This document shows positions 47,142-62,185 of a stretch of 64,000 nt of DNA, piece after piece; position 1 is the first letter of the stretch, and the number at the start of each line of letters is the position of its first letter. The position numbers were made by a program, and so were the translations under genes. The notes beneath the pieces were generated by a model, which was not told the DNA's origin, did not search any database, and saw nothing but the letters and a program-made list of their open reading frames with translations. The DNA comes from Terriglobia bacterium (GTDB taxonomy: Bacteria > Acidobacteriota > Terriglobia > Acidiferrales > UBA7541), in NCBI GenBank assembly GCA_020072785.1, contig JAIQGG010000007.1, forward strand, positions 43,794 through 107,793, read 5' to 3'.

Positions 47142-48338
47142 TTACGCCGCGCCCGGCGCGGAACAGACCGCAGCGATCAGCTCGGCCAGGACCCGCGCGC
47201 AGATTTCCACCGAAGCGAGCTCCACGTACTCTTCCCGTCCATGCAGGCCCCGGCCCGCGGGACCGAAGACAACTCCCGGGATGCCTGCCGCGGCCAGCAG
47301 CGCGGTGTCCGTCCAGGGAGCCATGCCCGCCAGGCGCACACTGCCCGTGACCGCACGGATGGCCGCGGCCGCGGCGCGCGCGATGGGCGCTTCTGGCGAA
47401 ATTTCGTACGCGGGGCGCGCGCCGAGTGGCCGGACGGTGGCCGCAAACTCGGGATTGCCGGCGCGCAGCTCCGCGAGACACCGCTCCAGCTCTTCCCGCG
47501 CGGACTGCTCCGTCTCCCCCGGCAGGAGCCTGCGCTCGTATTTCAGGCGGCACTCCGCGGGATAGCTGGATAGCTCCTGCCCGCCGGCGATCAACGAAGC
47601 GTGCAGCGAGGCCTGGCCGAGCAGCGGGTGCGGCGGCGGAAGACGCAGGCGCGCTTCCACCTCATCGAGGGCCCGCAGAACGCGGCCCATCGCGCGGATG
47701 GCGTCGCGGCCTTCGCCGGGCATGCTGCCGTGCGCGGCGCGCCCCTGCGTGGTCACTTCGAACCACGCGTAGCCCTTGTGCGCGACGACCAACTGCAGAT
47801 CGGTGGGCTCGAGAACCACGGCGCAGCCGGCAGTGACATGCTCGAGAAGTGCCGCGGTCCCCAGGCTGTTGCACTCTTCATCCACCACGGCGGCGAAAAA
47901 GAGCGGCTGGGCCAGAGCTTGGCCGCTGCGCGCAATGGCCACCGCCGCGGCGGCCATCGCTGCCACGCCGCTCTTGATGTCCAGCGCCCCGCGCCCGTAG
48001 AGCCGTCCTTCCTTCTCCCGGGGCGTGAACGCCTCGGGCATGTCCCCCGCGCCGACGGTGTCCATGTGCGCCAGGATCGCCAACCCGGCGCGCGGTTTGC
48101 CGCCGGCCCCGGCCGGGGCCTGCGGACCGAGCCAGGCGGTGACGTTGGGGCGGCCGGGCGCGGCTTCCGCGAGTTCCGCTTGAATTCCCTGCTGGCGCAA
48201 AAATGCGCAGAAAAATTCCGCGGCCGCTTTTTCGCCTTGGGCCCCCGGAACCAGCGTGGAATTGACGGAATCGATGGCCACCAGATCGCGCAGCAGCGCG
48301 TCCAGCAGCGCGCGGTCGATTTCGTGCGGCGCGCTCAT
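47142..48338 (-). CDS. M20 family metallopeptidase (ArgE/DapE type)
   Basis: A 398-aa di-zinc hydrolase. LAILAHMDTVGAG gives H91 and D93; GRGALDIKSG gives the bridging D120; VVDEECNSLG gives E154 and E155. The lid domain (about 190-300) has HGSMPGEGRDA. Family members remove acyl groups from amino acids or split dipeptides. The ATG overlaps the stop of the upstream ACP-ketosynthase gene (ATGA); it is the last gene of a five-gene operon. A larger open frame running to 49130 is only the upstream gene read out of phase. Confidence 0.9.
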   Translation of the reverse strand: MSAPHEIDRALLDALLRDLVAIDSVNSTLVPGAQGEKAAAEFFCAFLRQQGIQAELAEAAPGRPNVTAWLGPQAPAGAGGKPRAGLAILAHMDTVGAGDMPEAFTPREKEGRLYGRGALDIKSGVAAMAAAAVAIARSGQALAQPLFFAAVVDEECNSLGTAALLEHVTAGCAVVLEPTDLQLVVAHKGYAWFEVTTQGRAAHGSMPGEGRDAIRAMGRVLRALDEVEARLRLPPPHPLLGQASLHASLIAGGQELSSYPAECRLKYERRLLPGETEQSAREELERCLAELRAGNPEFAATVRPLGARPAYEISPEAPIARAAAAAIRAVTGSVRLAGMAPWTDTALLAAAGIPGVVFGPAGRGLHGREEYVELASVEICARVLAELIAAVCSAPGAA

Positions 48339-49639
48339 GCCCCGCTCGCGACCGGCTCGACCCAGCCGCCGCCGAAGAGCAGCCCTGGACCGAGGGAAGC
48401 CAGGAACACGGGCTGGCGCTCCGCGGCCGGAACCGAGGCCTGCGCGGCGAGCGCCGCATGCAACGCCGCGCCACAGGTGGACGATCCAAGATTTCCGCAG
48501 GTTCTGGCGATCAGCGGGAATTTCCCCGCGGGCACGCCGAGATGCCGCGCGAGTAGCTCGACCAGCCGCGGGTTGGGCTGGTGCGTGGCAAAGCCCGCGG
48601 CCTCGGCCAGCGCAAAGCCGCTGCGCAGGGCGGCGGCGCGCAACACTTTTTCCATGCGCGAGACGGCCGCGCGGGAGAGCGCCTCTCCATCGAACTGCAC
48701 ATCCAGCGTTCCGCCCGGTGCGCCGGCATCGGCGGGCGCCACGCGAATGGCCGCCGCATATTGCCCGGCGCAGCCGAACTGGAATTCCCCCAGCCGGTAG
48801 GCGTTCTCTCCGGCGGCACGTGCCTGCAGGAGAAACGCGCTGGCGCCATCGCCGAAAAGCCCGCCGAATTCGCCAACCACGCGCCCCGGCGCGAGAATGC
48901 GGCTGTGCACGTCGGCGGAGACCACCAGAATCGTCCGGGCCAGCCCCGCGGCAAGATAAGCCCGCGCCGCGGCCATAGCGTTGAGCAGCCCGAGGCAGGC
49001 GCCGCCGATATCCAATGCGCCGCAGTTTTCCCGTGCCAGCAGCCGCGAGTGCAACTGCGCGCCGAGCGAAGGATAGGAGTGCTGCGTCTCGCTGGTGGCC
49101 AGGATCCAGTCGATTTTCCCCGCGCCGCAACCCGCTATGCGCAGCGCCTGCTGCGCCGCCTGCGCCCCCAGCGTCAGCTCGCTCTCGCCTTCCCCCGCCC
49201 GCGCAATGGACTCGATCCCCGCGCGCTTCCGCAGCTTGCCAACAGGCATCCCGAATTCCCGGTCCACCACCTCGGAAGGAACGGTCCGCGACCCAAAAGC
49301 CGTGCCAGAACTGATGAGAAAGCCTCCTTCTACGGGGTCGCTCGCGATCACAGCGGTTTTCACTGGAAGTTCGGCAACTGCTGGCCCATCCGACGCGGCG
49401 ATGGCCGCCAGGATGCTTTCGATGCTCGACGGCCTGCCCATCAACAGCGCGCCCAGGTCGGGTGCACCGGTGGACGATTCGAGGGCGCGGAGGAAACTCA
49501 CCCAGGCCATGGAATCGAGAACGCCTTCTTCCACGAGATCCACGTTTTCGCGTGGAAGAGCTGCGTCCGGGGCAAGCTCCCTGCGCAGACAGCTTTCGAT
49601 CAAGCGGCGTGCGCGGCTGGCATCCATGGTCTTGGGCAT
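48335..49639 (-). CDS. acyl-carrier-protein domain fused to a FabH-like ketosynthase III
   Basis: A 434-aa two-domain protein. Residues 1-82 look like an acyl carrier protein: VDLVEEGVLDSMAWVSFL, with S43 in the DS(M/L) position that normally receives phosphopantetheine. Residues about 95-434 are a KAS III-type thiolase fold: C215 in DIGGACLGLL, H353 in ATHQPNPRL and N383 in RTCGNLGSST, the complete Cys-His-Asn triad. Such enzymes condense acyl-CoA with malonyl-ACP or transfer acyl groups. ATG 49639 has GAGGAG upstream and overlaps the previous stop by one base (TGATG). The product is unknown. Confidence 0.82.
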   Translation of the reverse strand: MPKTMDASRARRLIESCLRRELAPDAALPRENVDLVEEGVLDSMAWVSFLRALESSTGAPDLGALLMGRPSSIESILAAIAASDGPAVAELPVKTAVIASDPVEGGFLISSGTAFGSRTVPSEVVDREFGMPVGKLRKRAGIESIARAGEGESELTLGAQAAQQALRIAGCGAGKIDWILATSETQHSYPSLGAQLHSRLLARENCGALDIGGACLGLLNAMAAARAYLAAGLARTILVVSADVHSRILAPGRVVGEFGGLFGDGASAFLLQARAAGENAYRLGEFQFGCAGQYAAAIRVAPADAGAPGGTLDVQFDGEALSRAAVSRMEKVLRAAALRSGFALAEAAGFATHQPNPRLVELLARHLGVPAGKFPLIARTCGNLGSSTCGAALHAALAAQASVPAAERQPVFLASLGPGLLFGGGWVEPVASGA

Positions 49640-50352
49640 CAAAACTCCTCGAGCCATTCCCGGCTGGGCAAAGGAAATAGTGTATCCAACATCACCCAGC
49701 AACGGTCATGGAAAGGCCGCGTGAGGCCCAGGCGAATATAGTGATGCGGGCAGCAGATGACTTTGTTGTGAAAACGGGAGTTGAAGAAGCGTTCGAGGCG
49801 GGCATGGCGGTTGGCGCCGCGATGCTCGGCGAGCGCGGCTTCCATGAACTCGTTCCAGTCACGATCCACCATGGGCAGATCGCGGAGCGCCTCACCCGAA
49901 GGAAGAACGAGCGAGGCGCGCAACTCGTTGCCGCAGAGCTCGAGCCGCACGTTCTGCGTTTCGCAGCCGCAGATCGAGCGCTGCGCCTCGGCTGGCGCGG
50001 CGTACAAGCCCGCGCCGCGCCGGCTCTCGCGGATTTTGCAGCCGAATAGTTCGGCGAGGGAACGCGCAGTTTCCGCTTTGCGCAGGTAGGGGACAATTTC
50101 CGCCTCCGCTACTTCCCCAACTTTCTGCAGCCCTCTTGTGGAAGTCCGGTCCTCGACGTGTGGCGGAGGCGCGGGAAGGCTCAGGAGACTGCCTTCGAGA
50201 ATGTCGCCGCGGCGATGCGGAAAATACGCCCATCCTTTGCCGCGCGGCGGCAGAGGCCGCAGGGAATGGATTTTTTCGGCTTCGCGCGCGAGGCCGATGA
50301 TACAAAACGCCGGCCCCATCCGGGTGATTTCCGTAATGAGGAGTTTCGTCAC
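49639..50352 (-). CDS. unrecognised protein, possibly dual OB-fold type, in the DUF488 operon
   Basis: A 237-aa protein starting with GTG one base after the upstream DUF488 stop. The first half is beta-rich: KLLITEITRMGPAFCIIGLA, then HSLRPLPPRGKGW, RRGDILEGSLL and PPPHVEDRTST. This order (small-residue strand with a cysteine, then RP, then GD, then P-H-x-E-D) reminds me of dual OB-fold proteins, but I cannot verify it. The second half has three cysteines (SICGCETQNVRLELCG) and a late CCPHHYIRLGL. It overlaps the ACP-ketosynthase gene. Function unknown. Confidence 0.6.
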   Translation of the reverse strand: MTKLLITEITRMGPAFCIIGLAREAEKIHSLRPLPPRGKGWAYFPHRRGDILEGSLLSLPAPPPHVEDRTSTRGLQKVGEVAEAEIVPYLRKAETARSLAELFGCKIRESRRGAGLYAAPAEAQRSICGCETQNVRLELCGNELRASLVLPSGEALRDLPMVDRDWNEFMEAALAEHRGANRHARLERFFNSRFHNKVICCPHHYIRLGLTRPFHDRCWVMLDTLFPLPSREWLEEF

Positions 50353-50353
50353 G

Positions 50354-50857
50354 CTAGGCGCTCCGGGGCGGGCGTTTCTTGCGGGGAGGCTTGTATTTTT
50401 CGGAGACGAGATGGCGCACTTCGACGGAGTGACCCTGCCCGCGCCACCATTCAGCCAAACAATCAGCAGCGATGCGGCGGTGGCATTTCTCGGGACCCGG
50501 TTCGGAACACAGCAGAGCCATGGGCGCATCGGGCGGTGGCATCTCGAGAGAATGCGGCACGTCACGTTCTTTCAGCAACGCAAGAAAGGCGGCTTCGTAG
50601 CAGTTCCAGTCCTTCGTGGTGCGATAGGTCTTCAACAGCTCCGGCGTGGGCGCGAGCAGCACCTGGTGCTTATAGGAGATGCCGGCGAGGCGCTCCAGAA
50701 AGTAGGCCAGATCGGGATGCTTGGCGAAGCCCGAAAGCTGGCCGCCGCGGTGCTGGCGTATGTCGAGTACTTGTTTCACGCCGGCCGCCTGCAGCAAGGA
50801 AAAAAACTCCTCGGCCGTCTTGCCCGCGAAGCCGATGGTGCAGAGTAGGATGTGCAT
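50354..50857 (-). CDS. DUF488 family protein (second copy)
   Basis: A 167-aa protein. CTIGFAGKTAEEFFSLL, VLDIRQHRGGQLSGF and LLCSEPGPEKCHRRIAA are the family landmarks; the cysteine-histidine-arginine box at the end is shared with the neighbour. A basic tail (KYKPPRKKRPPR) may contact nucleic acid. DUF488 has no established activity. Five bases separate it from the preceding DUF488 gene and one base from the next gene. Confidence 0.85.
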   Translation of the reverse strand: MHILLCTIGFAGKTAEEFFSLLQAAGVKQVLDIRQHRGGQLSGFAKHPDLAYFLERLAGISYKHQVLLAPTPELLKTYRTTKDWNCYEAAFLALLKERDVPHSLEMPPPDAPMALLCSEPGPEKCHRRIAADCLAEWWRGQGHSVEVRHLVSEKYKPPRKKRPPRSA

Positions 50858-50862
50858 GGCGG

Positions 50863-51492
50863 CTAGAAAGATTCCAGCGCTTCGGGCGAAACCCGGAAGG
50901 CATATTTCTCGGACTGGAGGCGCAGGGCGTCCTCGAGGGCGGCGTCGCGGCCGGAAGTGAAGAGCGCGTCACTGGTCACATCCGCAAAACCGTGCAGGGC
51001 GAGGAGGCGATCTTCCGCTTCGCGCTGCGATTCGAGCGCACCGCCGCGGCGGATGTGCTGCGGCGCAACTCCGGCGGCCACCAGCGCGGGGCAGATGAGC
51101 AGAAAGCGATGGCATTCCAGGGGGTCTTCCTCCGCGCACAGCAGGGCGATATTGCCTCCGTGCGCGAGGGCGAGGCCGCGGTCGAGGCCGCTGCGAAACT
51201 CCGCGGAGTTGCGGCGCTTCGCATAGTCCACGAGACCGTCAGAGCGGTACGCGCGGGGGTCGCCGGGGCGGCCCCCCAGCTCCTCCCCGAGAAATTCGTA
51301 GCGGATGCCGGCGGAGGCCAGCGCTTCCTCTAAGAATTCGCGGTTGAACTGGGGAAAACGCGAACTGGCAGGGCGGCTGCGGACATCGCCAAGGATGCCA
51401 ATGGAATGGCGCTGCAAGGCGGCGAGGAGCGCCTCGGCCTCCAGATTCGAGTGACCAACGGTGAAGAAAGCGCCGGATTGTGACGGGGGCAT
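50863..51492 (-). CDS. DUF488 family protein (first copy)
   Basis: A 209-aa protein. FTVGHSNLEAEALLAAL, LGDVRSRPASSRFPQFNRE and LLCAEEDPLECHRFLL are the conserved DUF488 boxes. The C-terminus adds an RREAEDR-like charged helix and about 40 residues absent from the second copy. First gene of the operon. ATG 51492 is used; a GTG directly before it is equally possible. No clear ribosome-binding site is seen. The (GAGTTTC)7 array lies about 110 bp upstream. Confidence 0.83.
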   Translation of the reverse strand: MPPSQSGAFFTVGHSNLEAEALLAALQRHSIGILGDVRSRPASSRFPQFNREFLEEALASAGIRYEFLGEELGGRPGDPRAYRSDGLVDYAKRRNSAEFRSGLDRGLALAHGGNIALLCAEEDPLECHRFLLICPALVAAGVAPQHIRRGGALESQREAEDRLLALHGFADVTSDALFTSGRDAALEDALRLQSEKYAFRVSPEALESF

Positions 51493-51602
51493 CACGGGAA
51501 GCCAGCGGGCGTATTCTGCCGAATTCTGCGGCCAGGAACAAGGGCGGTCTTCAAAGACAGGGGGAACGAGACGAAATTCGAAAGCGCCTAATGAGGAAGA
51601 AC

Positions 51603-51654
51603 GAGTTTCGAGTTTCGAGTTTCGAGTTTCGAGTTTCGAGTTTCGAGTTTCGAG
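51603..51654 (+). repeat. heptamer tandem array, (GAGTTTC)7 plus GAG
   Basis: Seven perfect copies of GAGTTTC. It lies 42 bp past the stop of the HD hydrolase gene (minus strand) and upstream of the DUF488 operon. A 15-bp flank AGACGAAATTCGAAA (51569-51583) is also found next to the second array at 62088. Confidence 0.95.
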
Positions 51655-51696: not shown

Positions 51697-52329
51697 TCAG
51701 TCGGCAGGGCGGGCGCGGCGTTCCAGCGCGGAGACCACGCGGTCGAGCTCCTCGACGAGCGGCGTCACTCCGGCGGCGCGGAACTCCTCGACCAGAGCGC
51801 GGTAGTACCACAGCGTGCCTTCTTTGCGCCCGTGAAAGCGCTCGAAGACCGCGTCGCCGAGCAGGCGATGGTCGGCGAGAATCTCGCGTACGTTGGAAAG
51901 CTTGTCGGCGGCGGAAACCAGGCGGACCTCGGGCGATTCCCGGCGCACGCGGCGGATGTAGCGCTCCTTGCGTTCGCGCCACGGCGGGCGGAAGGTTTCG
52001 TCGGTGTCCGTGCAGCCCGCGACGATGCGCGCCACGCGCGTCCCGAACTTGCGGCGAATCTCGCGCAACCGCGGCAGGCCGCCCTGATCCTCCACGGCGT
52101 CGTGCAGCAGCGCGGCGATGACCGCGTTCTCGTCGCCGCCATACTGGATCACAATGGAAGCCACGGCCAGGAGATGCCCGACGTAGGGGTGTTCCTTGCC
52201 CTTGCGCGTCTGCCGGGCGTGGATGCGCGCGGCGTAGCCCAGCGCGCGGATGAAGCGGGAGGTCAGGGCGGGCGCGTGCGGCGCTTTCTTTGGCGGCGTG
52301 CGGCGCGCTCTTTTTTTCGGCGTGGACAT
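51697..52329 (-). CDS. HD-domain (p)ppGpp hydrolase-like protein (MESH1/SpoT type)
   Basis: A 210-aa protein with a basic N-terminal 20 residues (KKRARRTPPKKAP). HPYVGHLLAVASI, AALLHDAVEDQ (HD-ED) and RLVSAADKLSN carry the metal and nucleotide residues of the small alarmone hydrolase family. No synthetase, TGS or ACT domain follows. It should cleave the 3'-pyrophosphate of (p)ppGpp or a related molecule. No ribosome-binding site is evident at ATG 52329. It is divergent from the DinB-like gene. Confidence 0.88.
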   Translation of the reverse strand: MSTPKKRARRTPPKKAPHAPALTSRFIRALGYAARIHARQTRKGKEHPYVGHLLAVASIVIQYGGDENAVIAALLHDAVEDQGGLPRLREIRRKFGTRVARIVAGCTDTDETFRPPWRERKERYIRRVRRESPEVRLVSAADKLSNVREILADHRLLGDAVFERFHGRKEGTLWYYRALVEEFRAAGVTPLVEELDRVVSALERRARPAD

Positions 52330-61953: not shown

Positions 61954-62087
61954 ACCGCTGTGAGGCCGTAACCTTACTAGAATAGGAGAAAACGGAGGAT
62001 TGGTCAAAGCGGCCTGGGGTGACGGGAAGAAAAAGACGAAATTCGAAACGCGAAATCCCTTAACAAACACACCCTGCGAGAGGAGAC

Positions 62088-62185
62088 GAGTTTCGAGTTT
62101 CGAGTTTCGAGTTTCGAGTTTCGAGTTTCGAGTTTCGAGTTTCGAGTTTCGAGTTTCGAGTTTCGAGTTTCGAGTTTCGAGTTTC
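62088..62185 (+). repeat. heptamer tandem array, (GAGTTTC)14
   Basis: Fourteen perfect copies of GAGTTTC, exactly twice the number in the array at 51603. It begins five bases from the iscX stop codon (62188-62190) when read on the minus strand. The flank AGACGAAATTCGAAA at 62034-62048 matches that of the first array. Translated, the array yields a seven-residue period in every frame, which explains the spurious open frames across it. Confidence 0.95.

What the first reader, a model, noticed from the sequence alone, without database searches (positions are those of the whole stretch)
47142..51492. Five-gene coupled operon: two DUF488 proteins, an unrecognised protein, an ACP-ketosynthase III fusion and an M20 peptidase
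The gaps and overlaps are +5, +1, -1 (TGATG) and -4 (ATGA) bases, so the five proteins are almost certainly made together. DUF488 proteins have no known biochemistry, and joining them to an acyl-transfer enzyme and an amidase-type peptidase suggests a small-molecule or modification pathway: acylation by the ACP-ketosynthase, removal by M20. I know of no described system with this set.
Basis: partly seen in the sequence, partly recalled or inferred. Interest (0 to 1): 0.7.

Follow-up and report, generated by a model that had tools for sequence, protein, structure and literature searches.

The report
DUF488 defence-like operon with acyl carrier
A cluster of three genes resembling an untested candidate virus-defence system is, in some Acidobacteria, tightly joined to a fatty-acid-type enzyme carrying its own acyl-carrier arm, and the three genes and that arm appear and disappear together in evolution while the rest of the enzyme stays, which suggests the arm works for the defence-like module.

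Summary
The five minus-strand genes and all four junctions are exactly as described. They are not five equal partners. The core is A488-B488-C237-[ACP-KSIII], conserved in this order with tight junctions in every complete copy, across several Acidobacteriota lineages. A488 and B488 match PDC-M45B/C of a PADLOC candidate anti-phage system whose third member is a dual-OB protein. C237 is a very divergent dual-OB-like protein. PDC-M45 relatives elsewhere, including plasmids beside CBASS, CRISPR and restriction genes, lack the ketosynthase. Within the genus, one syntenic locus carries either the full operon or an orthologous ketosynthase missing all three genes and its ACP domain, its Cys-His-Asn triad intact. 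In 8 phylogenetically independent contrasts the triad of genes and the ACP change together 7-8 times, never oppositely. The ACP therefore probably belongs functionally to the DUF488/dual-OB module. M20 is optional and follows the ketosynthase. The C-H-N triad predicts carbon-carbon bond formation, not acyl transfer. Defence and acyl-linked nucleic-acid chemistry remain untested inferences.

The parts
50863..51492 (-). A488: DUF488 protein, 209 aa, PDC-M45B-like
   Evidence: Pfam DUF488 E 6.8e-21; PDC-M45B E 1.3e-54; CAEDP..CHR motif invariant in 16 loci
50354..50857 (-). B488: DUF488 protein, 167 aa, PDC-M45C-like, also over the cut-off of DUF488-N3a ('active' subclade)
49639..50352 (-). C237: divergent dual-OB-like protein, 237 aa, probable counterpart of PDC-M45A
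49385..49639 (-). ACP domain (residues 1-85) with phosphopantetheine-site Ser43 in LDSM; present with the A-B-C genes, absent from KS-only loci
48335..49324 (-). KSIII domain (from about residue 106), triad Cys215-His353-Asn383; kept without A-B-C and ACP in many relatives
47142..48338 (-). M20 hydrolase of ArgE/DapE type, optional neighbour of the KS
51697..52329 (-). HD_4-domain gene 204 bases upstream; frequent upstream neighbour of the locus in the family, with or without the DUF488 genes; not counted as part of the system

Best explanation
The operon is two modules in one transcription unit. Module 1 is A488-B488-C237 plus the N-terminal ACP domain. It is a divergent relative of the candidate defence cassette PDC-M45: the dual-OB protein would bind nucleic acid and the two DUF488 enzymes (rhodanese/phosphatase-type, Cys active site) would process nucleotides or nucleic-acid ends. 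Module 2 is a condensing KSIII with its own older function, optionally followed by an M20 hydrolase. The ACP arm, tethered by a flexible linker, couples the modules: it accepts the malonyl unit and holds the beta-ketoacyl product of the KS, so that the tethered acyl group becomes substrate, attached group or control signal of module 1. Shown: gene order, domains, residues, co-variation of ACP with A-B-C, KS independence, optional M20. Inferred: nucleic-acid binding, DUF488 chemistry, defence role, identity of the acyl group, and the coupling step itself.
For: Conserved A-B-C-ACP-KS order with overlaps or short gaps in distant Acidobacteriota. PDC-M45B and C profile hits; canonical DuOB-DUF488-DUF488 in G172/G196 and DUF488-DUF488-DuOB in G194. 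Plasmid copies beside CBASS, CRISPR type III accessory genes and a restriction-modification pair. C237 dual-OB evidence. The same locus carries the full operon or an ACP-less KS; full and ACP-less forms interleave on the KS tree, at least 8 changes forced by well-supported branches; 8 independent contrasts, ACP follows A-B-C in 7-8 and opposes in none, p about 0.008. G027 (full) against G012 (KS-only): flanks 92-93% identical, the difference ends at the ACP/KS linker. G030: A488 frameshift, B488 cut to 29 aa, ACP deletion removing the DSM serine, KS open.
Against: The ACP lies physically between the triad and the KS, so one deletion can remove both; the co-variation does not prove biochemical coupling. 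G045 keeps an ACP-KS without the triad. KS-only alleles of one subclade share the segment upstream, so some changes are exchange of alleles by recombination rather than separate losses. The C237-DuOB link is weak (hhalign probability 15%, 64-77%; no Pfam cut-off reached). Module 1 sits at a fixed chromosomal locus in this genus, not on an evident mobile island. No antiviral activity is known to me for PDC-M45, and most genomes compared are draft MAGs.
Confidence: 0.4

Rival explanations
1. Two independent units share one promoter: a PDC-M45-like cassette and a KSIII. The ACP serves only the KS (substrate channelling) and is lost as collateral when deletion or allele exchange removes the cassette next to it.
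For: The KS persists alone with its triad; G045 has ACP-KS without the cassette; PDC-M45 elsewhere works without any KS or ACP; contiguity alone can explain joint loss.
Against: The ACP stays fused in every complete operon over long divergence, and ACP is lost to the domain boundary in all but one KS-only genome although shorter deletions would spare it; G030 lost the ACP serine separately from the other lesions.
Confidence: 0.3
2. One reading: the ACP-KS acylates a small molecule or macromolecule and M20 removes the acyl group; the DUF488 proteins assist.
For: M20 is of the ArgE/DapE N-deacylase type and translationally coupled to the KS by ATGA.
Against: C-H-N rather than the acyltransferase triad C-H-D; M20 absent from most copies.
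Confidence: 0.1
3. A lipid or fatty-acid control locus: the KS is a FabH paralogue and the DUF488/dual-OB proteins regulate it or its transcript.
For: KSIII fold nearest FabH; the KS is nearly core in the genus (32 of 36 genomes); fixed chromosomal locus.
Against: A canonical FabH is present in 33 of 36 relatives; relatives of the DUF488/DuOB cassette lie on plasmids beside defence genes without any KS.
Confidence: 0.15

Closest known systems
PDC-M45 (PADLOC candidate system: dual-OB protein A, DUF488 proteins B and C)
   Same: A488 and B488 match the B and C models at E 1e-54 and 6e-44; three adjacent coupled genes with a dual-OB-like third member
   Different: Gene order DUF488-DUF488-dualOB rather than dualOB first; C237 does not match the PDC-M45A models; a fourth gene, ACP-KSIII, is always present in complete copies; here at a chromosomal syntenic locus
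FabH / beta-ketoacyl-ACP synthase III
   Same: Fold (TM 0.86 normalised on target), C-H-N triad
   Different: N-terminal ACP fusion; score below the FabH cut-off; a canonical FabH coexists in most relatives
KSIII-type acyltransferases CerJ / ChlB3
   Same: KSIII fold, work with ACPs (PMC9573744)
   Different: They carry Cys-His-Asp; this protein has Cys-His-Asn
D-alanyl / peptidyl carrier proteins (DltC type)
   Same: The ACP domain's only weak hits are DltC (E 0.0053) and peptidyl/D-alanyl carriers (E 0.2-1.5); shared L-D-S
   Different: Fused to a KSIII; no adenylation enzyme in the operon; the hits are not significant
ArgE/DapE M20 deacylases
   Same: M20 catalytic and dimerisation domains
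   Different: Just below the TIGR01910 cut-off (203.7 against 217.6 bits); substrate unknown; optional in the locus

Membership tests
PDC-M45 | DUF488 proteins matching PDC-M45B and PDC-M45C | tested here: met
   E 1.3e-54 and 6e-44
PDC-M45 | Third protein matching the PDC-M45A profiles | tested here: not met
   No PADLOC hit for any of 14 C237 members; the DuOB of G194 also misses these profiles though it passes Pfam DuOB. Hence called a relative, not a member
PDC-M45 | Three genes adjacent and co-directional | tested here: met
PDC-M45 | Anti-phage activity | not testable with these tools
   Most PDCs are unvalidated candidates (PMC12988326)
DuOB (PF22557) | Score over the Pfam gathering cut-off | tested here: not met
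   No hit for the window protein; best of 14 members E 0.0092
DuOB (PF22557) | Two OB-type beta domains, homologous over the length | tested here: inconclusive
   hmmsearch 20.8 bits to the L069 DuOB against a decoy maximum of 5.0 and collinear hhalign; fold matches to RPA, LEF-3, HIN-200 at Z 5.2-5.9 and Teb1 by Foldseek E 0.009, all weak
FabH (TIGR00747) | Curated score cut-off 292 bits | tested here: not met
   117 bits
KSIII | Thiolase fold with Cys-His-Asn | tested here: met
KSIII acyltransferase (CerJ/ChlB3) | Cys-His-Asp triad | tested here: not met
   Asn383 invariant; Asp in CerJ/ChlB3
Acyl carrier protein | Four-helix bundle with phosphopantetheine serine at the start of helix II | tested here: met
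   the Pfam profile itself is only weakly matched
ArgE/DapE deacylase (TIGR01910) | Curated score cut-off | tested here: not met
   203.7 against 217.6 bits; the M20 superfamily itself is met

The most novel reading that the evidence does not exclude
The DUF488/dual-OB module uses an acyl group held on the fused carrier arm, made by the ketosynthase, as a chemical group or trigger in nucleic-acid or nucleotide modification during defence: an immune-type module driven by fatty-acid-synthase chemistry.
Probability: 0.12. Interest if true: 0.9.

Novelty: new variant of a known kind. Interest (0 to 1): 0.6.

Why it matters
I found no experimental biochemistry for DUF488 proteins or PDC-M45 in the papers held. 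A lineage in which the cassette is tied to an acyl-carrier arm and a condensing enzyme narrows what the DUF488 enzymes may act on. It also gives a natural experiment: closely related genomes with and without the module at one locus, with the ACP serine as a single-residue test. If the coupling is real, it would be an unexpected bridge between fatty-acid-type chemistry and a candidate nucleic-acid-directed defence module.

Tried and rejected
Direct family search of C237 (Pfam, NCBIfam, PADLOC, PDB sequences): nothing. C237 in viral contigs: none. PDB sequence relatives of A488 and B488: none. The rhodanese-phosphatase paper of Burroughs and Aravind is not held, so their DUF488/DuOB predictions are from memory, except DUF4326 (PMC9503650). 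Chance adjacency of all five genes: rejected for A-B-C-KS, kept as possible for M20. KS as the sole housekeeping FabH: considered because G000 has no other good FabH match, rejected because 33 of 36 genus genomes carry a canonical FabH. Strictly independent deletion in every KS-only genome: rejected, because KS-only alleles L114-L117 and L122 share upstream sequence, so allele exchange is likely. The acyl-CoA ligase next to the cassette in G194 was considered as a parallel acyl link; a single case with a gap of about 190 bases, not used. Promoter/terminator scan gave nothing above chance. A phylum-wide search with the ACP-KS alignment found only the own genome, but scored only 5 candidates per genome, so absence is not shown.

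Full report
OBSERVATION. Upstream, 204 bases separate the first gene from an HD_4-domain gene; downstream, a methyltransferase gene is convergent.

WHAT THE GENES ARE. A488 and B488 are DUF488 proteins that match PDC-M45B (E 1.3e-54) and PDC-M45C (E 6e-44) of PADLOC. Both keep a C-x-E...C-H-R signature without exception in 16 loci, so both look enzymatically intact. C237 has no direct family match. Two distant homologues touch Pfam DuOB (best E 0.0092). An HMM of 18 C237 sequences finds the DuOB protein of genome G194 (confirmed by Pfam) at 20.8 bits against a best of 5.0 in 999 decoys, and hhalign is collinear over the whole length. The AF2 model (pLDDT 76.6) is nearest, weakly, to tandem-OB nucleic-acid binders: Teb1, LEF-3, HIN-200 domains, RPA. 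The fourth gene is an ACP (residues 1-85), a disordered linker and a KSIII domain (pLDDT 85), with ACP Ser43 and KS Cys215, His353 and Asn383 kept. The fifth is an M20 hydrolase of the ArgE/DapE type.

DISTRIBUTION. C237 was found in 19 of 151 relatives (one of them, G081, is a marginal hit with none of the other genes). In every complete copy, in two families of the window's class and in further Terriglobia and gp13 MAGs, the order is A488-B488-C237-ACP-KS with tight junctions. Elsewhere in the phylum (G172, G196, G194) and on plasmids of Proteobacteria, DuOB and DUF488 genes form the cassette without a KS, beside CBASS, CRISPR type III accessory genes or restriction-modification.

MODULARITY. 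A KS search over the same 151 genomes showed that genus members lacking C237 mostly hold a KS orthologue (57-73% identical) that begins after the ACP, at the same syntenic place. My tally of the 36 genus genomes: 11 full, 2 eroded (G030; G010, where C237 is cut and no KS is found), 17 KS-only, 3 with one DUF488 plus KS (G002, G034, G035), 3 with none. G014, G025 and G029 were called KS-only from the match range alone. All KS copies aligned keep C-H-N. On the KS-domain tree full and KS-only forms are interleaved; well-supported branches force at least 8 changes. In 8 phylogenetically independent contrasts the ACP follows A-B-C in 7-8 and opposes it in none (sign test p about 0.008). The pair G027/G012 has 92-93% identical flanks, and the 2.46 kb of G027, replaced by about 0.4 kb in G012, ends at the ACP/KS linker. 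G030 is an intermediate: A488 frameshifted, B488 reduced to 29 residues and fused to C237, the ACP stretch with the DSM serine deleted, KS open. KS-only alleles of one subclade share the upstream segment, so exchange between the two alleles by recombination is likely in addition to deletion; the A-B-C tree broadly agrees with the KS tree. The outgroup lineages are all full, so loss is the simpler direction, but regain is not excluded.

M20. Orthologues exist only in G000, G007, G036 and G057 among the 18 genomes tested, and in G005, where M20 follows a KS without DUF488s. M20 therefore goes with the KS and is optional.

MECHANISM. The C-H-N triad is the condensing type (established knowledge of FabH); the KSIII acyltransferases CerJ and ChlB3 have C-H-D (PMC9573744). 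The KS most likely makes a beta-ketoacyl thioester, here on its own arm. DUF4326, which I recall as belonging to the same clade as DUF488, was proposed to act on ribose-linked phosphates of ADP-ribose derivatives (PMC9503650). The simplest coupled model is a nucleic-acid-binding dual-OB protein and two nucleotide- or end-processing DUF488 enzymes that use or respond to the ACP-bound acyl group. The coupling rests on co-variation and co-linearity, not on biochemistry, and physical adjacency is a real confounder. I give the coupled model 0.4 and independence of the two units 0.3.

KNOWN OR NEW. PDC-M45 is a known candidate; most PDCs are unvalidated (PMC12988326). By the strict test this operon is not a PDC-M45 member, because C237 misses the PDC-M45A profiles; by composition it works like one. 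The ACP-KSIII fusion as a standing fourth member, and the gain and loss of the ACP with the cassette, I have not found described (papers searched).

LIMITS. Most genomes are draft MAGs without names; loci L022-L041 and L042-L060 overlap (many are the same contigs from two collections) and were not counted twice in the tree. The gene caller used was crude and is not relied on.

Noticed in passing
window 51602-51654 and 62087-62184: Perfect heptamer arrays (CGAGTTT): 7.6 copies upstream of the operon and 14 copies near the tRNA-Glu gene; the near relative G007 has only a short degenerate stretch at the first site.
   Followed up: partly
G000 whole genome: No canonical FabH is found in the window's own genome (98.9% complete), while 33 of 36 genus genomes have one; only the operon's KS matches well. 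Possibly an assembly gap, possibly a real loss.
   Followed up: partly
L069 8350-9837: In genome G194 an AMP-binding (acyl-CoA ligase type) gene lies directly upstream of a DUF488-DUF488-DuOB cassette on the same strand, a second possible acyl link.
   Followed up: no
L073 3992-5655 and L078 4004-5692: Plasmid cassettes of Klebsiella and Acinetobacter pair DuOB and one DUF488 with a DUF4326 protein, apparently in place of the second DUF488.
   Followed up: no
L125 5841-7593, L126 5905-7650, L123 5721-7201: Genomes G034 and G035 keep A488 alone, and G002 keeps B488 alone, directly before an ACP-less KS; whether these single DUF488s are functional is open.
   Followed up: no
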